NCBI GenBank assembly: GCA_040757115.1
Contig: JBFLYA010000174.1
Span: forward strand, 1 to 5,121
Reading direction: 5' to 3'
DNA from: a bacterium
Lineage (GTDB): Bacteria > UBA9089 > CG2-30-40-21 > SBAY01
DNA: 5,121 bases
The notes below the pieces were generated by a model that was given only the letters and a program-made list of their open reading frames with translations, was not told the origin of the DNA and did no database searches. The translations under genes were made by a program, and so were the position numbers. This document shows, piece after piece, positions 1 to 5,121 of this stretch (the first letter of the stretch is position 1; each line of letters begins with the position of its first letter).

Positions 1-84
1 AATAACTCTAATAGTGAAATCTATGCAGATTTGGTGTCCAAAAGGGATTTCCTCCAAAGAGCAAAATGCAAAACTCGTTTATAG
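1..84 (+). CDS. Possible 3' tail of an unidentified gene entering from the left edge
   Basis: Reading frame 1 of the plus strand is open from the window edge to a TAG at 82-84, giving 27 residues that include EIYADLVSKRDFLQRAK. The composition (charged, helix-like) looks protein-like. The last few codons run into the tandem repeat that begins at 77, as if the repeat had been placed at the gene end. If real, this gene would converge on the flagellar cluster. I do not recognise the family. An open frame of 27 codons can occur by chance, and the opposite strand is also open here, so support is weak. Confidence 0.2.
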   Translation, partial: NNSNSEIYADLVSKRDFLQRAKCKTRL

Positions 85-180
85 TTTATGGTTTATAGTG
101 TATAGTTTATAGTGTATAGTTTATAGTGTATAGTTTATAGTCCTTCAACTATAAACTATCAACTATAAACTATCAACTAT
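77..180. repeat. 14-bp tandem repeat in two inverted arms (7-bp sub-period)
   Basis: The left arm has a degenerate unit at 77-90, exact copies of gtttatagtgtata at 91-104, 105-118 and 119-132, and a partial unit at 133-140. After a 6-base spacer, the right arm carries aactataaactatc at 147-160 and 161-174 plus a partial copy at 175-180. The right arm is nearly the reverse complement of the left, so the block can fold as a long AT-rich hairpin. Each 14-mer is two near-identical heptamers (gtttata/gtgtata and aactata/aactatc). The two arms differ consistently inside the unit (tagtgtat against tagttgat), so they were probably amplified separately. No function can be assigned. Confidence 0.9.
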
Positions 181-201
181 CTTTGCCAAAGTTCAGTAAA
201 A

Positions 202-315
202 TTATCTCTTTCCTTTCAGCGTTAAAATACTTGAAGCAAAGATATTACCAAATTCCTCCAACTCTTTGAGAAACCCTGCTACTTCCTCTTTGAAATTTGA
301 TTTGTAATTTTGCAT
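202..315 (-). CDS. Doubtful small open frame, possibly a gene fragment
   Basis: A 37-codon frame starts at an ATG whose complement lies at 313-315 and ends with TAA at 202-204. The product ends in FLKELEEFGNIFASSILT followed by LKGKR, which reads like a real amphipathic, charged protein end. There is no Shine-Dalgarno sequence upstream. The start codon lies right next to the gatattt tandem repeat, so the first codons may be repeat sequence rather than gene. It could be the decayed 3' end of a gene whose 5' part was lost or replaced by repeats. I do not recognise the family. It lies on the same strand as the flagellar genes, 286 bp beyond flgJ. Confidence 0.2.
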   Translation of the reverse strand: MQNYKSNFKEEVAGFLKELEEFGNIFASSILTLKGKR

Positions 316-318
316 TTT

Positions 319-360
319 GATATTTGATATTTAATATTTGATATTTGATATTTGATATTT
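319..360. repeat. Heptanucleotide tandem repeat, six gatattt units
   Basis: Six consecutive 7-base units fill 319-360. Five are exactly gatattt and the third (333-339) is aatattt. The tract is pure AT apart from one G per unit and has no coding sense. Just outside it, ttttgcatttt (308-318) is the exact reverse complement of aaaatgcaaaa at 63-73, so the whole stretch 63-318, including the 14-bp repeat, is bracketed by an 11-bp inverted pair. Confidence 0.92.
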
Positions 361-455
361 ATTTGTTGTCTCCCTCAAATCCTATTTTGCAGAACCCTAT
401 ACACTATTTTAACCTTTATGCTAGATTAAGACACCACCTAAATTTCCAAACTTTT

Positions 456-474
456 AAAAAATCACAGTTTGTGA
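456..474 (-). terminator. Weak intrinsic terminator candidate beyond flgJ
   Basis: Read on the minus strand, tcaca-aac-tgtga (474 down to 462) forms a 5-bp stem with a 3-base loop and is followed at once by six T (461-456). This is the order of an intrinsic terminator, and it lies on the downstream side of the flagellar genes. The stem is short and AT-rich, so it would be weak on its own. The larger palindrome at 496-570 lies between it and flgJ and could add to 3'-end formation. Confidence 0.3.
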
Positions 475-495
475 ACTTTTAAAGTATAACTTCAT

Positions 496-570
496 TGGGA
501 CGCAGATTAACGCAGATTTACAGGATTTTATATTTTAATATCCTGATAATCTGAGTAAATCTGCGTCCCA
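496..570. repeat. 75-bp imperfect palindrome 25 bp beyond the flgJ stop
   Basis: Two 31-base arms, 496-526 and 540-570, are reverse complements at 27 of 31 positions and are separated by a 13-base AT loop. Each arm carries two tandem cgcagatt-like words about ten bases apart, and the outer ends are tgggacgcagatt. On the minus-strand transcript it would form a long hairpin directly after flgJ. No T-run follows, so it is not a canonical intrinsic terminator; protection of the mRNA 3' end is possible. Its form suggests a member of a dispersed palindromic repeat family, which the window alone cannot prove. Confidence 0.85.
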
Positions 571-600
571 TTAACTTGAATCTTATTAAGCAAATTGCGT

Positions 601-951
601 TCACAAATATTTACTTAATTGGTCATAAATTTGCTTGGATAAACCAAATTGGTCTGATTTAGCCATTAATTTTGCATATTCATCATATAACATATCTTCA
701 AAAACCTCTTCTGAAAAACCGGCATGAAAAAGGCTGGTTTTGTGAATAGATTTACGCATCTCTTTTAGTAATTGATTGATAAAAATAGACTCCATCTCAT
801 AACTTACTTCTTTTAATCTTGCCTTTGCCTTTTCTTTATCCTGAGTATTTTTAAGGGCAGTGGCAAAATCATTTGCTTGATTAGTCTTATTGATAAATTT
901 ATAATCAGGAAGATTATTATTTAATAATTGTAGTGGTAATATATTAGGCAT
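601..951 (-). CDS. flgJ: Flagellar rod-binding protein FlgJ, single-domain form
   Basis: The 116-residue product matches the FlgJ N-terminal (rod-binding) domain. Residues about 48-112 hold the family pattern: EMESIFINQLLKEMRKS, then SLFHAGFSEEVFEDMLYDEY, then AKSDQFGLSKQIYDQL. The first 45 residues are a polar, poorly conserved leader with no signal peptide, consistent with export by the flagellar type III system. In this family the domain acts in the periplasm as a rod scaffold or cap. Enteric FlgJ is about 313 residues because a C-terminal muramidase is fused; here the protein stops after the rod domain, so peptidoglycan cleavage must come from another enzyme. The ATG at 949-951 has AAGGAG (complement 957-962) five bases upstream. 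It is last in the cluster, 45 bp after flgI. Confidence 0.93.
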   Translation of the reverse strand: MPNILPLQLLNNNLPDYKFINKTNQANDFATALKNTQDKEKAKARLKEVSYEMESIFINQLLKEMRKSIHKTSLFHAGFSEEVFEDMLYDEYAKLMAKSDQFGLSKQIYDQLSKYL

Positions 952-967
952 TTTTACTCCTTAATCT

Positions 968-991
968 ACTCCACCACCTCGAAGGTGGAGT
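968..991 (-). promoter_or_regulatory. Hairpin in the flgI-flgJ spacer next to the flgJ ribosome binding site
   Basis: actccacc (968-975) and ggtggagt (984-991) form a perfect 8-bp stem with an 8-base loop. An alternative 6-bp stem, ccacct (974-979) with aggtgg (983-988) and a 3-base loop, uses overlapping bases, so two folds compete. On the transcript the hairpin ends five bases before the flgJ Shine-Dalgarno sequence (complement 956-962) and follows the flgI stop by five bases. It could tune flgJ translation or mark an mRNA processing site. No T-run follows, so it is not a terminator. Confidence 0.45.
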
Positions 992-996
992 TACTT

Positions 997-2028
997 TTAC
1001 ATAATGATAATTTCCGCGTGTAAAGCACCAGCAGATTTAATAGCTTGAAGTATGGCAATTAAATCCTCTGGCGAGGCCCCAATTGAATTTAAGGCTGAAA
1101 CGACATCTTCGATAGTCACCGTTGGTGAAAATAGAATTACATTTTCTTCTTTTGCTTCTTTTGATTCAGTGGCAGTGCGACTTTTTACGACAACACTTAT
1201 ATTTCCATGTGCGACAGCCACTTGTGAAATGCGAATATCTTTGCCCATCACGATTGTTCCAGTTCGCTCGTTCACAATTACTTTAGATTGCATATCCGGA
1301 GTTAAGGTTAAACCTTCTAATCCAGATATAAATTCAACTATCCTTTCTTTATAGTTTTCGGGTATTTTGACCAGGACTAAAGATGGGTCTAATGCTTTAG
1401 CGGTATTTGGGGTAAATTTAGTATTAATTGCGGTTGCAATTCTAAAGGCAGTCGTAAAATCACTTTCCTTAAGCACTAAAGAGACAGTATTTTCTTTGAC
1501 AATCGGGCAGGTAACATCTTTTTCGATAATTGCTCCTTGCGAAATCTGGGCGACAGTAAGATGCTTTCTACCAGTGGGTTTGCCCCCAATTAAAATAGGT
1601 CCTTGAGCTACGGCATAAACCGCCCCATCTGGACCTAATAATGGTGTCTGAAGTAAAACGCCGCCTGCTAAACTTTCCGCATTACCTAAGGTTGCTACGA
1701 CTATATCCACTTTATCTCCTGCTCTGGCAAATGAAGGTAATTGAGCTGTCACAATGACAGCCGCCACATTTTTTACCTCCATTTTCTCTTTATCCACCGA
1801 AATCCCTAATCGAGTCAGCATATTCACAATGGATTGAGCGGTAAAAAAAGTTCCTTTATCATCTCCGGTCCCGTTTAATCCTACAACCAGGCCATATCCC
1901 ATTAATTGGTTAGGTCTTACCCCTTCTATTCGGCATAAATCTTTTACCCTGACAACCGTTTCCTGGGCATAAACTACGACACTTATAAAGATAAATATAA
2001 AAATGATAAGTCTTCGTAAGACAACCAC
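997..2028 (-). CDS. flgI: Flagellar P-ring protein FlgI
   Basis: FlgI is exported to the periplasm and polymerises with FlgA help into the P-ring, the bushing around the rod in the peptidoglycan layer. From the GTG at 2026-2028 the product is 343 residues (E. coli FlgI is 365). Residues 1-21 are a signal peptide: two arginines, a hydrophobic IIFIFIFISVVV core and a VYA cleavage site before QE. The mature N-terminus carries the family signature RVKDLCRIEGVRPNQLMGYG followed by LVVGLNGTGDDKG. Further typical segments are LPSFARAGDKVDIVV, PLLGPDGAVYAVAQGP and VNERTGTIVMG, and the end LHAEIIIM fits the family. I chose GTG because AAGGAGG (complement 2038-2044) lies nine bases before it. The ATG at 2037 directly abuts that site, and still earlier starts lie in repeat DNA. 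The 295-bp spacer from flgH is filled by a repeat element. Confidence 0.95.
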   Translation of the reverse strand: MVVLRRLIIFIFIFISVVVYAQETVVRVKDLCRIEGVRPNQLMGYGLVVGLNGTGDDKGTFFTAQSIVNMLTRLGISVDKEKMEVKNVAAVIVTAQLPSFARAGDKVDIVVATLGNAESLAGGVLLQTPLLGPDGAVYAVAQGPILIGGKPTGRKHLTVAQISQGAIIEKDVTCPIVKENTVSLVLKESDFTTAFRIATAINTKFTPNTAKALDPSLVLVKIPENYKERIVEFISGLEGLTLTPDMQSKVIVNERTGTIVMGKDIRISQVAVAHGNISVVVKSRTATESKEAKEENVILFSPTVTIEDVVSALNSIGASPEDLIAILQAIKSAGALHAEIIIM

Positions 2029-2037
2029 GCTTGCCAT

Positions 2038-2044
2038 CCTCCTT
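2038..2044 (-). promoter_or_regulatory. flgI Shine-Dalgarno site that decides the start
   Basis: The minus strand reads AAGGAGG followed directly by ATGGCAAGC and then GTG. An in-frame ATG with zero spacing cannot be served by this site, whereas the GTG nine bases downstream has ideal spacing and leaves a clean signal peptide. The start at 2028 is therefore preferred over 2037. The site lies 11 bp inside the boundary of the repeat element at 2055-2300, so the element has not disrupted it. Confidence 0.7.
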
Positions 2045-2054
2045 ATCTGGTAAT

Positions 2055-2300
2055 TGGGTAAGCGTTCAGCCACAGAGGCATAGAGTTCACAGAGAATTAA
2101 GGAAATTAGCCACAAATGGATACGAATTAACCTCTGACATCCCATAAATGTAGTGCGAACCTTTAAGTTCGCCTTTTGGCTTGCCAGAAGCGAAGCTAAC
2201 GCCTCGCACTACAAATCTTTTTGTATTTATGTTCATTCCTGGTTATATATTCCCTCTGTGTTCTCTGTGACTCTGTGGCTATATCCTGAACGGTTACCCA
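2055..2300. repeat. 246-bp mosaic element with inverted ends filling the flgH-flgI spacer
   Basis: The outer ends tgggtaagcgttcag (2055-2069) and ctgaacggttaccca (2286-2300) are inverted copies with one mismatch in 15. Just inside, gccacagag (2069-2077) pairs with ctctgtggc (2271-2279), and cacagagaa (2088-2096) pairs with ttctctgtg (2261-2269). Small offsets between the pairs show that the arms have drifted. The left arm continues with a gccacaaatggatacgaatt module (2109-2128). The centre holds a separate three-hairpin element (2149-2213). It encodes nothing; no transposase is present. The layout resembles a non-autonomous miniature element or a nest of palindromic repeats. A nine-T tract follows at 2301-2309. 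Confidence 0.75.
2149..2213. repeat. Compact three-hairpin palindromic element nested inside the larger one
   Basis: The ends tgtagtgcga (2149-2158) and tcgcactaca (2204-2213) are perfect 10-bp inverted repeats. Between and overlapping them are three abutting hairpins of 18 bases each: gcgaac/gttcgc (2155-2172), cttttggc/gccagaag (2173-2190) and gcgaagc/gcctcgc (2190-2207). The second and third each contain one position that pairs only as a G-U wobble on one strand. The fold is like a small cloverleaf, but there is no anticodon arm or CCA end, so it is not a tRNA. It is more GC-rich than its surroundings, which suggests separate origin. Confidence 0.7.
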
Positions 2301-2323
2301 TTTTTTTTTACTTCAATACGACA

Positions 2324-2950
2324 TTAAAATAAAACATTAACTATTTTCGTCAATACCCTGGTGATAACTCCTCGTTTTTCCTTATCTGACAGGCTGGTTC
2401 CACCTTTATATTTAATTGAGGCATCTAAAATATAGGTTGAGAGAATAGAATTATCTGCCTCAATATCTTCTGGTCTAATTACTCCCGACACGGCTAATAT
2501 TTGTTCTTCGTTATTAATAAGTAATTTTTTACTTCCCTCTATGGCTAAATTTCCATTAGGTAGAACATTTACAACTTGAGCCGTCAGATTTGCCTTTAAA
2601 ATGCCAGAGCGACTTGTATCGGCATCGCCTTTATATTTACTTTTTCCTTTGGCGCCAAAGTAAGGTATAAAAGATAACAGATTCTTTTTACCCTTTTCCA
2701 CAGTTGTTGGACCGCCAGAAAGTTCGGCATCTTTAGATTTTTTAGTTGAGCTCTTCTGCATCGCTGAAGATGACTCAACTACAAGAACTGTGATTATATC
2801 TCCTATTTTTTTCGCCTTATGGTCAACATATAAACTTTCCTGGCTACTTTTTGCCCAGAGTGATTCTGCCTCAGTTTCATAAGCCCTAATCCAGGAAAAA
2901 ATACCAATAAAGAGAATAAGAATGACATAAAATTTATCTTTTATTTTCAT
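2324..2950 (-). CDS. flgH: Flagellar L-ring protein FlgH, without a lipobox cysteine
   Basis: FlgH forms the L-ring, the outer-membrane bushing of the flagellar rod. The 208-residue product has an N-terminal hydrophobic signal (residues 5-20, about VILILFIGIFSW) with likely cleavage after IRA at 23. Family motifs follow in order: SLW at 30-32, KAKKIGDIITVLVVES at 45-60, a polar linker, GILKANLTAQVVNVLPNGNL at 116-135, IEGSKKLLINNEEQ, SGVIRPEDIEADN at 155-167, then STYILDASIKYKG. The C-terminus reaches the end expected for the family. Enteric FlgH is a lipoprotein, but this protein has no cysteine at all, so it cannot be lipidated in the usual way. The ATG at 2948-2950 is preceded by AAGGAGG (complement 2960-2966) at nine bases. 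It follows flgA by 58 bp. Confidence 0.95.
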   Translation of the reverse strand: MKIKDKFYVILILFIGIFSWIRAYETEAESLWAKSSQESLYVDHKAKKIGDIITVLVVESSSAMQKSSTKKSKDAELSGGPTTVEKGKKNLLSFIPYFGAKGKSKYKGDADTSRSGILKANLTAQVVNVLPNGNLAIEGSKKLLINNEEQILAVSGVIRPEDIEADNSILSTYILDASIKYKGGTSLSDKEKRGVITRVLTKIVNVLF

Positions 2951-2970
2951 TGAATTAAACCTCCTTATTT

Positions 2971-2998
2971 TTGGTAATTGGTAACTGGTGAATGGTAA
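2971..2998. repeat. Degenerate heptanucleotide repeat, four ttggtaa-like units
   Basis: Four consecutive 7-base units, ttggtaa, ttggtaa, ctggtga and atggtaa, occupy half of the 58-bp flgA-flgH spacer. They stop four bases before the flgH Shine-Dalgarno site. Each unit keeps the tggt core (exactly tggtaa in three of four). The tract is upstream of flgH on the transcript, so changes in copy number would alter the spacer but not a reading frame. Confidence 0.7.
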
Positions 2999-3008
2999 TT
3001 ACTTAGCA

Positions 3009-3944
3009 CTACCTCGCCACAACTGTTCTGCTATCCTCAACAATACTGTTAATTATCTTATCCGAATCCACATTTTTTACTTGAATTTCATCTCCTAATC
3101 TTCCATCTTCCTTTGCTATTCCTTTTGCCTGGACGATAAGTGCTCCAATTTCTTTTTTTATCATAACCACATCTCCTCGTTTAATTAAAGGAGGAATTTC
3201 GATCAAATTATAAGTTAATATTCCTCCTTGTGTCAGCGGGCTTTTCAATCTTTTTCCAATGACATCTTCTATCGGAGCAGGATTAATGTAAGTTATCTCT
3301 CTTTCCTGGATTTCTATGTCCACTGGCGTTAAAATATGATGTCGTGGCAATGGTTTAGCCGCTATCACAACATTTGTAAAGCGATGAATTTTGAACCCCA
3401 ATCTAATCGTTTTATATTTTGTCCCATTTACCTTGATGGTCACTGGAAGATATACCTGATTTTTTAACATTGGGGTATTTTCAATCTCATATTCTACCTT
3501 TCCAGCAGGTAAAATAACATTTTTCCGAATGTTGAATGATTCTATTGCTATTCGAGCAGTCGTATTAAGATTAGTCAGGATATACTCTTGAGCTATTTTT
3601 GTTATCTCTTCAACATCCAATTTTTGAGAAGAAGTTGTTATTTCTATCTTTGTCGCTCCAATGAGATTAAAATCTTCCTCTTTAATCTTTGCTTGCAAAA
3701 TTTTTAACTTAACATACTCCTGAGTAATATATCTTTTTCCAGCAGGCAAAGGTGCCTGACCAATATAGATGTTATCTACAGATGTATTGCTTAAGTTAGC
3801 AATGTCCTTTAAAAATATCTCCTTACCTGTCAGGCAAACATTTTCTTTCAATTCAATCGTAGTTAAGGCAGGCGAGATACTGGAAAACAAAAAGACAAAT
3901 AGCCCGGTAAAAAAGAATATCTTCAATAACTTATTAATTATCAT
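3009..3944 (-). CDS. flgA: Flagellar P-ring assembly chaperone FlgA
   Basis: FlgA is a periplasmic chaperone needed for FlgI to assemble into the P-ring. The 311-residue product starts with a signal peptide (KLLKIFFFTGLFVFLF core, likely cleavage after SPA at residue 26). Residues about 27-190 form a poorly conserved N-terminal part with a GQAPLPAGKRYIT segment. The SAF-like domain begins near 191 (VVIAAKPLPRHHILTPVDIE) and includes IEDVIGKRLKSPLTQGGIL. The C-terminal beta domain follows (KRGDVVMI, then GIAKEDGRLGDEIQVKNVDS). Enteric FlgA is about 219 residues; longer forms like this one occur in other phyla. The ATG at 3942-3944 has AGGAGA (complement 3951-3956) six bases upstream. Its place between flgG and flgHI fits its role. 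Confidence 0.93.
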   Translation of the reverse strand: MIINKLLKIFFFTGLFVFLFSSISPALTTIELKENVCLTGKEIFLKDIANLSNTSVDNIYIGQAPLPAGKRYITQEYVKLKILQAKIKEEDFNLIGATKIEITTSSQKLDVEEITKIAQEYILTNLNTTARIAIESFNIRKNVILPAGKVEYEIENTPMLKNQVYLPVTIKVNGTKYKTIRLGFKIHRFTNVVIAAKPLPRHHILTPVDIEIQEREITYINPAPIEDVIGKRLKSPLTQGGILTYNLIEIPPLIKRGDVVMIKKEIGALIVQAKGIAKEDGRLGDEIQVKNVDSDKIINSIVEDSRTVVAR

Positions 3945-3955
3945 TTAACTTCTCC

Positions 3956-4017
3956 TGAAAATAGGAAGTAGAGAGTAGAGAGAAAATCCTTCCTCCACCT
4001 GTTTTTTCCTATTTTCA
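3956..4017. repeat. 12-bp inverted repeat ending at the flgA ribosome binding site, with a 7-bp repeat inside
   Basis: tgaaaataggaa (3956-3967) and ttcctattttca (4006-4017) are perfect 12-bp inverted copies 38 bases apart. The stem ends exactly where the flgA Shine-Dalgarno complement (3951-3956) begins, so folding of the mRNA could affect flgA translation. Inside the loop, agtagag occurs twice in tandem (3967-3973 and 3974-3980) plus two bases of a third unit, another 7-base period. Confidence 0.65.
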
Positions 4018-4028
4018 TTCTTCTGTTG

Positions 4029-4043
4029 TGAACCCACGGTTCA
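4029..4043. repeat. Short GC-richer hairpin in the flgG-flgA spacer
   Basis: tgaacc (4029-4034) and ggttca (4038-4043) form a perfect 6-bp stem around a 3-base cac loop. It sits 82 bp beyond the flgG stop on the transcript. No T-run follows on the minus strand, so it is not an intrinsic terminator. It may be a fragment of a dispersed repeat. Confidence 0.4.
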
Positions 4044-4062
4044 TGAGCGTTCTTCTGAAAAT

Positions 4063-4116
4063 CGGGGTTTGGGGATTCTTTTATTCCCGAATCCCGAATC
4101 CTCAATCCCGAATCCC
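4063..4116. repeat. Heptanucleotide tandem repeat (cccgaat) with an inverted partner arm
   Basis: Units cccgaat (4086-4092), cccgaat (4093-4099), cctcaat (4100-4106), cccgaat (4107-4113) and a partial ccc (4114-4116) run in tandem. They end nine bases beyond the flgG stop codon. On the other side of a short AT loop, cggggtttggggattc (4063-4078) is an imperfect reverse complement of two units, so the tract can fold back. This is the same arrangement as the 14-bp repeat at 77-180: heptamers facing inverted heptamers. Confidence 0.8.
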
Positions 4117-4125
4117 TTTATTCTT

Positions 4126-4917
4126 TTATCTCTTCAACCCACCGACGATGCCCAGCATTGCATCTCCAGTTTGAATTGCTTTTGAATTAAGTTCATAAGC
4201 CCGCTGGGCGATAATCATATTGACCATCTCATCAACTATATTTACATTTGATAATTCTAAGAAGTTTTGCTCCAATCTACCAAACCCTTCCCTTCCGGGA
4301 GTACCGGTAATAGGGTCACCACTTGCGGCACTATCTTTAAATACATTCTTACCAATAGGATTTAGTCCCGCTGGACTGGCAAATCTAACTAATTGAATTG
4401 TACCTACTTCCTGAGGTGTTTTTGTTTCATTTCCGATAATGACTGAAACAGTCCCATCTTCAGTAATGGTAATTTGGGTAGTTCCAGGCGGGATAACTAT
4501 TTCTGGTTGTAAAATATGTCCATTAGAAGTAACTAATTTACCCTCCTGGTCCATTTTAAAAGAACCATCTCGCGTATAACCTGTTGACCCATCCGGTAGA
4601 AGTAACTGAAAGAATCCTTCTCCTTCTATAGCTATATCCAGAGGATTTTGGGTCTCTTGCAAATTCCCTAAGGAATGAATTTTTTGAGTTCCCGCAATAG
4701 CTACTCCATGCCCAACATGAATACCTGTTGGTAAGACACTTCCTGTAGTTATTGGTGTGCCTGGTGATTTTAATACTTCATAGATTAAGTCTTCAAAATC
4801 TACTCGTGACTTCTTAAATCCAGCAGTATTAACATTAGCCAGATTATTGGCAATAGTGTCGAGATTAAATTGTTGTCCAGCCATACCTGTGGCCGCTGTC
4901 CATAATGAACGCATCAT
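4126..4917 (-). CDS. flgG: Flagellar basal-body distal rod protein FlgG
   Basis: FlgG builds the distal rod, the drive shaft that passes through the P- and L-rings. The 263-residue product matches E. coli FlgG (260) over its whole length. The N-terminal rod domain contains SLWTAATGMAGQQ and the hallmark IANNLANVNTAGFK (about residues 23-36). YEVLKSPGTPITTGSVLP corresponds to the FlgG-specific 18-residue stretch that separates it from hook protein FlgE. Central motifs include GEGFFQLLLPDGSTGYTRDG. The C-terminal domain ends with ELSNVNIVDEMVNMIIAQRA and NSKAIQTGDAML. I start at the first of two tandem ATGs (4915-4917) because GAGGAGGT lies eight bases upstream; the second ATG would give 262 residues. 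The cluster probably continues upstream, for example with flgF, beyond the window edge. Confidence 0.97.
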   Translation of the reverse strand: MMRSLWTAATGMAGQQFNLDTIANNLANVNTAGFKKSRVDFEDLIYEVLKSPGTPITTGSVLPTGIHVGHGVAIAGTQKIHSLGNLQETQNPLDIAIEGEGFFQLLLPDGSTGYTRDGSFKMDQEGKLVTSNGHILQPEIVIPPGTTQITITEDGTVSVIIGNETKTPQEVGTIQLVRFASPAGLNPIGKNVFKDSAASGDPITGTPGREGFGRLEQNFLELSNVNIVDEMVNMIIAQRAYELNSKAIQTGDAMLGIVGGLKR

Positions 4918-4925
4918 TTTAATAT

Positions 4926-4933
4926 ACCTCCTC
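4926..4933 (-). promoter_or_regulatory. flgG Shine-Dalgarno site fixing the tandem ATG start
   Basis: The minus strand reads GAGGAGGT, eight bases before the first of two adjacent ATG codons and eleven before the second. This fixes the start at 4917 (or 4914) and rules out the in-frame ATG at 4960-4962, which would add 15 residues unlike any FlgG and would begin within the neighbouring repeat. Confidence 0.8.
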
Positions 4934-4950
4934 GTATTTAATTTTAGATT

Positions 4951-5079
4951 GTAACTGTTCACCGCACAGACACAGAGACGCAGAGAAAAAAATTAAGTAA
5001 CTATTCAGCCTCAGATGGACACGGATGAAACACGGAAAATTCGTAATCCGTATCCGTTTTCCGTGTCCGTAATTAGGCT
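4951..5079. repeat. Second copy of the cacagag-type mosaic element, with a ggacacgga palindrome
   Basis: gtaactgttcaccgcacaga (4951-4970), then cacagagacgcagag (4971-4985), parallels the left half of the 2055-2300 element (gggtaagcgttca, then gccacagag and cacagagaa). After an A-rich joint it continues with agcctcagatggacacgga (5007-5025), which parallels gccacaaatggatacgaa at 2109-2126. Here that module forms an inverted repeat: agcct (5007-5011) and ggacacgga (5017-5025) pair with tccgtgtcc (5060-5068) and aggct (5075-5079). The same modules in the same order and orientation at both places indicate a dispersed family. It fills the region upstream of flgG. Confidence 0.7.
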
Positions 5080-5100
5080 CAAGGTTTTTCCTCCTCTTGC

Positions 5101-5121
5101 CCTCTGCCCTCTGCCCTCTGC
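5101..5121. repeat. Heptanucleotide tandem repeat (cctctgc), cut by the window edge
   Basis: Three exact copies of cctctgc fill the last 21 bases, and a degenerate pyrimidine-rich lead-in (ctcctcttgc) precedes them at 5091-5100. The tract reaches the end of the window, so its true copy number is unknown. Confidence 0.85.

What the first reader, a model, noticed from the sequence alone, without database searches (positions are those of the whole stretch)
77..5121. Unrelated tandem repeats sharing a 7-bp period in most intergenic spacers
Seven tracts have a 7- or 14-base period but different sequences: gtttata/gtgtata (77-140), aactata/aactatc (147-180), gatattt (319-360), ttggtaa (2971-2998), agtagag (3967-3982), cccgaat (4086-4116) and cctctgc (5101-5121). 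None lies in a coding region. A shared period without shared sequence points to a mechanism that amplifies or tolerates exactly seven bases, rather than to spread of one repeat. Heptanucleotide repeats are known in cyanobacterial genomes, so the class is not new, but several different ones in 5 kb of a flagellar cluster is striking.
Basis: partly seen in the sequence, partly recalled or inferred. Interest (0 to 1): 0.6.

Follow-up and report, generated by a model that had tools for sequence, protein, structure and literature searches.

The report
Seven-base repeats ending S23-gene cassettes
The different seven-base repeats between this bacterium's flagellar genes are mostly worn-down pieces of a small mobile cassette: a four-helix-bundle (S23) gene flanked by mirror-image runs of a seven-base word whose spelling changes from cassette to cassette while its length does not, a pattern also found around such genes in many other bacteria.

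Summary
All seven tracts exist and none is coding. Period 7 dominates genome-wide: in 1.16 Mb, 254 tracts at lag 7 against 0, 13, 74 and 48 at lags 5, 6, 8 and 9. The tracts are not seven independent repeats. 77-141 and 145-181 are complementary arms of one hairpin, and with 316-360 they lie in one ~440-bp nested mobile element whose core is a 'four-helix-bundle' (4HB/S23, PF05635) gene cassette with its gene internally deleted.

The same anatomy, (heptad)n-4HB gene-(reverse-complement heptad)n, surrounds 4HB genes across Bacteria. Lag-7 arrays flank 39 of 68 such genes in other phyla (outer flanks: 3) and 11 of 12 on plasmids. In 60 cassettes the two arms match at 5.9 of 7 bases (permuted 3.7), with 48 different heptamers. 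Nostoc plasmids show empty and filled sites for two cassettes: arrays and gene arrive together. Orthologous arrays differ by whole multiples of 7 (8 of 8).

So the shared period is real, and its best explanation is cassette anatomy. In this genome the pieces are further spread inside MITEs. Why seven, and what moves the cassette, remain unknown.

The parts
1..438 (.). Nested mobile element, left end cut by the contig end: MITE with terminal repeat GGTGGTGTCT...AGACACCACC (right end 429-438) containing a gene-deleted 4HB cassette
   Evidence: aligned with 428-bp copy L023 and with base MITEs L111, L113, L098 that lack the cassette; the L023 copy is absent from G001 and has an 8-bp duplication GAAAATTA
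77..141 (+). Heptad arm GTTTATA/GTGTATA
   Evidence: 250-270 matches per strand genome-wide with up to 3 or 2 mismatches
145..181 (-). Complementary heptad arm TCAACTATAAACTA; forms a hairpin with 77-141
   Evidence: direct reading
196..289 (-). Remnant of the 3' part of a 4HB gene
   Evidence: 94 bp matching at 99-100% the 3' region of intact 4HB cassettes L043/L044; too short to score with the HMM
290..315 (-). Remnant of the 5' end of the same 4HB gene; deletion junction CTTCCTCT|TTGAAAT at 289/290
   Evidence: alignment with L043/L044
316..360 (+). Heptad arm TTTGATATTTGATA (AAATATC class), the arm upstream of the deleted 4HB gene
   Evidence: TCAAATA arrays lie upstream of intact 4HB genes L043/L044
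2058..2297 (.). 240-bp IS66-type MITE GTAAGCGTTCAG...CTGAACGGTTAC with 8-9 bp repeats (CACAGAGA class)
   Evidence: 96% copy elsewhere in G001; same ends as an IS66 transposase-bearing element L288 893-2455; absent at this site in G001
2971..3000 (.). Solo heptad arm TTGGTAA directly upstream of the flgH ribosome-binding site
   Evidence: identical in G001; a different heptad hairpin (TTTTGGA) in the same spacer of G003
3967..3982 (.). Solo heptad arm AGTAGAG upstream of flgA; one unit longer in G001
4062..4078 (+). Left arm TCGGGGTTTGGGGATTC of a heptad hairpin
   Evidence: Direct reading; its GGGGATTC is the 8-bp target duplicated by an IS66-type MITE in G001
4085..4116 (-). Right arm TCCCGAA (CCCGAAT) of the same hairpin
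   Evidence: direct reading
4951..5121 (.). Left part of a nested IS66-type MITE (GTAACTGTTCA...; continues to about 5352 of the contig beyond the scaffold gap)
5093..5121 (.). Heptad array CCTCTGC inside that MITE, cut by the scaffold gap
   Evidence: AGAGGGC arms flank intact 4HB gene L020/L034

Best explanation
Most heptanucleotide arrays here are arms, whole or worn, of a small cassette: (heptad)n - ribosome-binding site - 4HB/S23 gene - (reverse-complement heptad)n. A cassette inserts between genes with both arms and gene together (shown in Nostoc plasmids). The arms gain and lose whole units (shown), presumably by slippage, and stay complementary to each other while their sequence drifts, presumably by copying one arm from the other in a fold-back hairpin (inferred). 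Loss of the gene leaves a hairpin; loss of one arm leaves a solo array (the three forms are shown side by side, the order of events is inferred). In this genome cassettes and hairpins have also been captured by MITEs and multiplied (shown). The window tracts are such remnants. I think it most likely that the RNA hairpin and the ring-forming, Avd-like 4HB protein read the repeats in a fixed register, which holds the length at seven while sequence is free; this last step is not shown.
For: Lag-7 arrays within 350-400 bp of 4HB genes: own genome 15/19, genus 11/14, phylum 19/32, other phyla 39/68, against 1, 1, 3 and 3 in outer flanks of the same loci; lag 8 in 6, 0, 2 and 7. Plasmid 4HB genes of cyanobacteria and Riemerella: 11/12 lag 7, 1/12 lag 8. 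Arms inverted-complementary: 5.88/7 against permuted mean 3.66, maximum 4.1 in 2000; 48 distinct heptamers in 60. Control genes of this genome: 0/638 with matching inverted arms within 250 bp, against 5/19 4HB genes. Filled and empty sites for two cassettes in nine Nostoc plasmid alleles; the empty spacers hold no heptads. G001 holds an intact (GTCGTAA) cassette upstream of flgG where G000 has none. Window element resolved layer by layer. 4HB cassettes and heptad hairpins inside IS66-type MITEs with 8-bp duplications. Unit-wise length change 8/8. Period stays while heptamer similarity falls to background below 70% protein identity. Weak Avd similarity of the proteins.
Against: Only 26 4HB genes against 254 lag-7 tracts in a quarter of the genome: most arrays have no gene, and their descent from cassettes is shown for few. 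The solo tracts at 2971 and 3967 and the CCCGAAT hairpin have no direct link to a 4HB gene. The HMM does not score the window remnant; its identity rests on paralogues L043/L044. About 40% of 4HB genes in other phyla lack a clear lag-7 array, and some carry 8- or 9-bp units, so seven is a strong preference, not a rule. The sampled genes of other phyla were those with the best scores, not a random set. No protein-repeat binding has been measured.
Confidence: 0.75

Rival explanations
1. Heptad hairpins are an independent class of element (or of slippage-prone sequence), and 4HB genes have merely been picked up by, or prefer to land in, such hairpins.
For: Gene-less hairpins and solo arms far outnumber 4HB genes here; hairpins occur inside several MITE types; in the window the GTTTATA hairpin replaced another arm, so hairpins can move without the gene.
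Against: In Nostoc the empty spacers contain no heptads and array and gene appear together; matching inverted arms around other genes are absent (0/638); the association holds across phyla.
Confidence: 0.17
2. Seven-base slippage: a replication or repair enzyme of this lineage amplifies or tolerates exactly 7-bp units at any sequence, with no link to an element.
For: Many unrelated units, one length, whole-unit length changes.
Against: Arrays come in complementary inverted pairs (48 inverted against 15 direct neighbouring pairs), concentrate at 4HB genes in many phyla, and sit inside elements with precise empty sites. Slippage alone predicts neither inversion nor the gene.
Confidence: 0.05
3. 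The arrays are cis-regulatory or translational elements kept by selection (protein-binding sites next to ribosome-binding sites, as proposed for TAACTGA in Beggiatoaceae; or G-quadruplex formers, as proposed for GGGAATC in Xanthomonas).
For: Solo arms at 2971 and 3967 lie just upstream of the flgH and flgA ribosome-binding sites, and many GGTAATT arrays do the same; upstream arms of 4HB genes are G-rich (40 of 60 with G>C, 7 with C>G).
Against: The same spacers hold different heptads or MITEs in close relatives; copy number and sequence vary; no shared sequence. A later use of some copies is not excluded.
Confidence: 0.1
4. Chance or an assembly artefact.
For: The genome is a draft of 462 contigs, and contig or gap edges fall inside repeats.
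Against: Shuffles give 0.02 tracts; the same arrays recur in an independent genome and in complete plasmids.
Confidence: 0.01

Closest known systems
23S rRNA intervening sequences (IVS) carrying the S23p ORF, e.g. Coxiella burnetii (PMC4990558)
   Same: Same protein family (PF05635, '23S_rRNA_IVP'); inverted-repeat stem around the ORF; the Coxiella IVS has tandem heptamers GACAGAT upstream of the ORF, 2 or 3 copies between strains.
   Different: The cassettes here lie between protein genes, not in 23S rRNA; both arms are heptad arrays; the heptamer differs from cassette to cassette. The paper treats the heptamers as a local detail of one IVS.
Heptanucleotide short tandem repeats (STRR) of filamentous cyanobacteria such as Calothrix PCC 7601, and GGGGATT repeats of Nostoc
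   Same: 7-bp units of several sequences, intergenic, a few copies; 4HB genes of Nostoc and Calothrix plasmids carry such arrays as arms.
   Different: In the papers read here these repeats are described without a linked gene or element.
GGGAATC repeats of Xanthomonas (PMC4692102)
   Same: Heptamer arrays, mostly four units, 70-75 of them as close inverted pairs; Xanthomonas campestris has an S23 protein of solved structure (2gsc).
   Different: Studied as G-quadruplexes; 'S23' and 'four helix' do not occur in that paper. Whether XCC0516 is flanked by GGGAATC was not tested here.
TAACTGA direct repeats of Beggiatoaceae (PMC4679880)
   Same: Heptamer arrays of 2-6 copies close to start codons, patchy across phyla with no known mechanism of transfer.
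   Different: One heptamer, almost never inverted in that genome; a translational role was proposed; no 4HB gene was mentioned.
IS66-derived MITEs
   Same: GTAAC...GTTAC ends, 8-bp duplications, no transposase; a broken IS66 element with the same ends is in this genome.
   Different: They act here as carriers of heptad hairpins and 4HB cassettes; the heptads are cargo, not their ends.
Avd of diversity-generating retroelements
   Same: Weak but significant similarity of some 4HB proteins (bAvd E 7.8e-8 for L272; DivGenRetAVD E 2.6e-6 for L029).
   Different: Below the curated cut-offs; no reverse transcriptase lies in the cassette.
Constant-length, variable-sequence tandem repeats of Bacillus (52 and 20-21 nt, PMC8161180)
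   Same: Same paradox: constant unit length, variable sequence.
   Different: Other lengths; no link to a gene cassette reported.

Membership tests
S23/IVS-type element | Encodes an S23p/PF05635 four-helix-bundle protein | tested here: met
   Met for intact cassettes (L140, L029, L043, L268, L272). In the window only a gene remnant, known through L043/L044.
S23/IVS-type element | Complementary repeats at both ends that can form a stem | tested here: met
   60 cassettes, 5.88/7 against 3.66 permuted
S23/IVS-type element | Located inside 23S rRNA | tested here: not met
   The cassettes are intergenic. The genome's 23S gene does hold gene-less hairpins with 9- and 8-bp unit arms.
S23/IVS-type element | RNase III excision of the RNA | not testable with these tools
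   Needs RNA work
Heptanucleotide STRR | Tandem 7-bp units of several sequences in intergenic DNA | tested here: met
IS66-type MITE | Ends GTAA.. shared with an IS66 element, 8-bp target duplication, no transposase | tested here: met
   For the G001 insertion at window 4071-4078 (GGGGATTC) and L090/L075 (AATCTCTT)
IS66-type MITE | 8-bp target duplication at the window copies 2058-2297 and 4951- | tested here: inconclusive
   No clear duplication by reading; the sites are rearranged relative to G001
MITE of the GGTGGTGTCT family | Terminal inverted repeat and target duplication | tested here: met
   L023 copy, GAAAATTA; L104b AAAAATTC, L104a CAAATCTG. The window copy lacks its left end.
Diversity-generating retroelement | Reverse transcriptase with template and variable repeats next to Avd | not tested
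   No reverse transcriptase annotated within the plasmid cassettes; not searched for genome-wide
Phase-variable contingency locus | Repeat number controls expression of the neighbouring gene | not testable with these tools
   Unit number varies; effect on expression unknown

The most novel reading that the evidence does not exclude
4HB/S23 cassettes with heptad arms are a distinct, pan-bacterial class of small mobile element whose Avd-like ring protein handles nucleic acid in seven-base steps. This sets the unit length while the sequence drifts, and it is the common source of the heptanucleotide repeats described separately in cyanobacteria, Xanthomonas, Beggiatoaceae and Coxiella.
Probability: 0.35. 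Interest if true: 0.9.

Novelty: new variant of a known kind. Interest (0 to 1): 0.74.

Why it matters
Heptanucleotide repeats have been reported in bacteria for decades as oddities without an origin, and S23/IVS proteins as genes without a function. If each is half of the same cassette, both questions become testable: repeats can be predicted from the gene and vice versa, empty and filled sites can be collected to find the mechanism of movement, and the 4HB protein has an obvious candidate ligand. It would also explain how a repeat can keep its length but not its sequence, through concerted drift of two complementary arms, without a special polymerase.

Tried and rejected
2) Counting all tracts as independent repeats: rejected, tracts 1-3 are one element. 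3) Unit sequence dictated by the protein: similarity of heptamers is high only above about 70% protein identity and equals background below, so a fixed recognition code is not supported. 4) Ordinary transposition of the cassette itself with a long target duplication: the Nostoc sites show at most 3-6 bp of ambiguous direct repeat. 6) 4HB genes in phages: no match. 8) Structure prediction was not run, as the 4HB loci came from tools outside its stated list of allowed sources.
Full report
What is there. The window holds five flagellar genes on the minus strand: flgG, flgA, flgH, flgI and a FlgJ-type rod-binding protein. Shuffled windows give 0.02 lag-7 tracts against five observed at the same threshold. 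In 1.16 Mb of the genome the number of tracts by lag is 0, 13, 254, 74, 48 and 34 for lags 5 to 10. In a 388 kb sample, exact lag-7 runs in non-coding DNA number 28 against 0-2 for lags 5, 6, 8 and 9, with 40 different heptamer classes. The coding mask there is a simple ORF mask, so coding counts are rough.

The tracts are not independent. GTTTATA (77-141) and TCAACTATAAACTA (145-181) are complementary arms of one hairpin. Together with TTTGATA (316-360) they lie in a dispersed element found many times in the genome. CCCGAAT (4085-4116) pairs with GGGGTTTGGGGATTC (4062-4078). CCTCTGC lies within a nested IS66-type MITE and continues beyond a 100-N gap. TTGGTAA and AGTAGAG are single arrays just upstream of the ribosome-binding sites of flgH and flgA.

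A close relative shows how the spacers change. G001 (same genus, flanking DNA 89-99% identical) has the same gene order but different spacers. At window 4071-4078 it has a 255-bp insertion with GTAACCGTTCA...TGAACGGTTAC ends and an 8-bp duplication, GGGGATTC. The 2971 array is identical. The 3967 array is one 7-bp unit longer. Upstream of flgG, G001 holds (GTCGTAA)n, an intact four-helix-bundle gene, then (TTACGAC)n. In more distant relatives the same spacers hold other heptad hairpins: TTTTGGA in the flgA-flgH spacer of G003, and AAAAGTG/CACTATT in the flgF-flgG spacer of G002.

The gene. The protein is PF05635/TIGR02436, '23S rRNA-intervening sequence protein' or 'four helix bundle protein'. 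Its closest solved relatives are 2gsc (XCC0516) and 2rld. Some members have sub-threshold similarity to Avd of diversity-generating retroelements. This genome has 26 matches, and 120 of 290 sampled genomes have at least one.

Association tests. Lag-7 arrays occur beside 4HB genes in 15 of 19 (own), 11 of 14 (genus), 19 of 32 (phylum) and 39 of 68 (other phyla) cases, against 1, 1, 3 and 3 in outer flanks of the same loci; lag 8 occurs in 6, 0, 2 and 7, other lags rarely. Of 12 plasmid-borne 4HB genes from named cyanobacteria and Riemerella, 11 have heptad arms and one has 8-bp arms. In 60 cassettes with arrays on both sides, the upstream unit matches the reverse complement of the downstream unit at 5.88 of 7 positions, against 3.66 when partners are permuted (maximum 4.1 in 2000) and 3.5 for direct orientation; 48 units are distinct. 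None of 638 control genes in this genome has matching inverted arms within 250 bp, against 5 of 19 4HB genes. Neighbouring arrays in general are inverted 48 times and direct 15 times. Genes from other phyla were taken from the best-scoring matches, so they are not a random sample.

Arrays arrive with the gene. Nine Nostoc plasmid alleles of one operon were compared. In one spacer, three alleles hold a TCAGGAG cassette, five have a 3-bp spacer with no heptads, and one has an unrelated 199-bp sequence. At the next spacer, one allele holds an AAAAGGG cassette; in the others the two genes overlap by one base or are 2-4 bp apart. Direct repeats at the ends are at most 3-6 bp and ambiguous. A neighbouring spacer of the same operon holds a gene-less hairpin and a solo arm of the same heptamer, the two derived forms also seen in the window. 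A Pseudanabaena cas6-cas4 spacer also exists with and without a cassette, though the empty allele there has its own short repeats.

The window element resolved. Aligning copies gives three layers. The base is a MITE with GGTGGTGTCT ends (L111, L113, L098; the related 428-bp L023 copy has an 8-bp duplication GAAAATTA and is absent from G001). Inside it lies an AAATATC-class 4HB cassette whose gene has lost its middle (junction CTTCCTCT|TTGAAAT); L043 and L044 are the intact cassette outside the MITE. In the window and some other copies, one arm of that cassette (GCAAATATAAAAATTACATATCAAAAT) is replaced by the GTTTATA hairpin; L104, L112, L096 and L109 keep the original arm. How the replacement happened is not known.

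Spread inside MITEs. Heptad hairpins sit in an IS66-type MITE (L090 against L075, 139 bp, duplication AATCTCTT) and in an element with TA-flanked ends (L023 against L134). Whole AAGTAGG cassettes with 4HB genes, intact or broken, sit in IS66-type MITEs with duplications ACTTTTCT and GTGAAATG (L038/L062 and L047/L073). A broken IS66 transposase element with the same ends is present (L288 893-2455), and 265 such ends were counted in 1.16 Mb. This explains why arrays far outnumber 4HB genes here.

How the arrays evolve. Of 20 orthologous arrays, nine differ in length; all eight differences of 70 bp or less are multiples of 7. Arrays in cassettes have a median of 4.4 units, most often four. Heptamers are the same in 7 of 8 pairs with proteins at least 90% identical, in 2 of 5 pairs at 70-90%, and no more alike than random below that. 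So unit number and sequence turn over, length and complementarity do not. Slippage plus copying between arms in a folded hairpin would do this; that is inference. The constancy of seven across phyla suggests a reader of fixed register, with the pentameric 4HB protein as candidate; that is a hypothesis. Eight- and nine-base arms exist, so the rule is not absolute.

Literature. The Coxiella IVS has tandem heptamers upstream of its S23p ORF, varying between strains (PMC4990558). Xanthomonas GGGAATC and Nostoc GGGGATT repeats are known, often as inverted pairs and mostly with four units (PMC4692102). TAACTGA repeats are known in Beggiatoaceae and cyanobacteria (PMC4679880). Constant-length variable-sequence repeats are known in Bacillus (PMC8161180). 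In the open-access library searched I found no paper that links the heptads to S23/4HB genes in general; older subscription papers could not be read.

Verdict. It is a new variant of a known kind (IVS/S23 element plus heptanucleotide repeat), with mechanism of movement and reason for seven still open.

Noticed in passing
L248 1433-4914 (G000 contig 63): The genome's 23S rRNA gene is about 490-560 nt longer than the model and holds gene-less hairpins whose arms are 9-bp (AGTTTATAG) and 8-bp (AGTGAGGA) tandem units; the first seems to lie at the helix-45 site used by known IVSs (site assigned from memory).
   Followed up: partly
L273, L276: 4HB cassettes sit inside CRISPR-cas operons (cas6-cas4 in Pseudanabaena, cas10-cmr3 in Picosynechococcus) without breaking the genes.
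   Followed up: partly
window 2058-2297, 4951-5121; 265 ends in 1.16 Mb: Large expansion of IS66-type MITEs with internal 8-9 bp repeats (CACAGAGA, CGCAGAGA class), which produce much of the lag-8 and lag-9 signal.
   Followed up: partly
upstream arms of 60 cassettes: The arm upstream of the 4HB gene is G-rich on the coding strand (G 31%, C 11%; 40 of 60 units with more G than C); in some cassettes the last unit seems to supply the Shine-Dalgarno sequence.
   Followed up: no
G001, G003 and G002 flgF-flgG spacer (L116, L117, L118): The same spacer holds unrelated 4HB cassettes in G001 and G003 and a gene-less heptad hairpin in G002: repeated use of one site or fast replacement.
   Followed up: partly
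window 77-181 against L104, L112, L096, L109: The GTTTATA hairpin replaces, rather than interrupts, a cassette arm; the mechanism is unknown.
   Followed up: partly
window 5121: The window ends at a 100-N scaffold gap inside the CCTCTGC array, so its true length is unknown.
   Followed up: yes
L012 2413, L019 15005 and similar: GGTAATT-class hairpins have a loop with a shared sequence (AAATACCGTTYGGCTGAGCTCAGGACGAAACTATTTAACC), suggesting another dispersed gene-less family.
   Followed up: no
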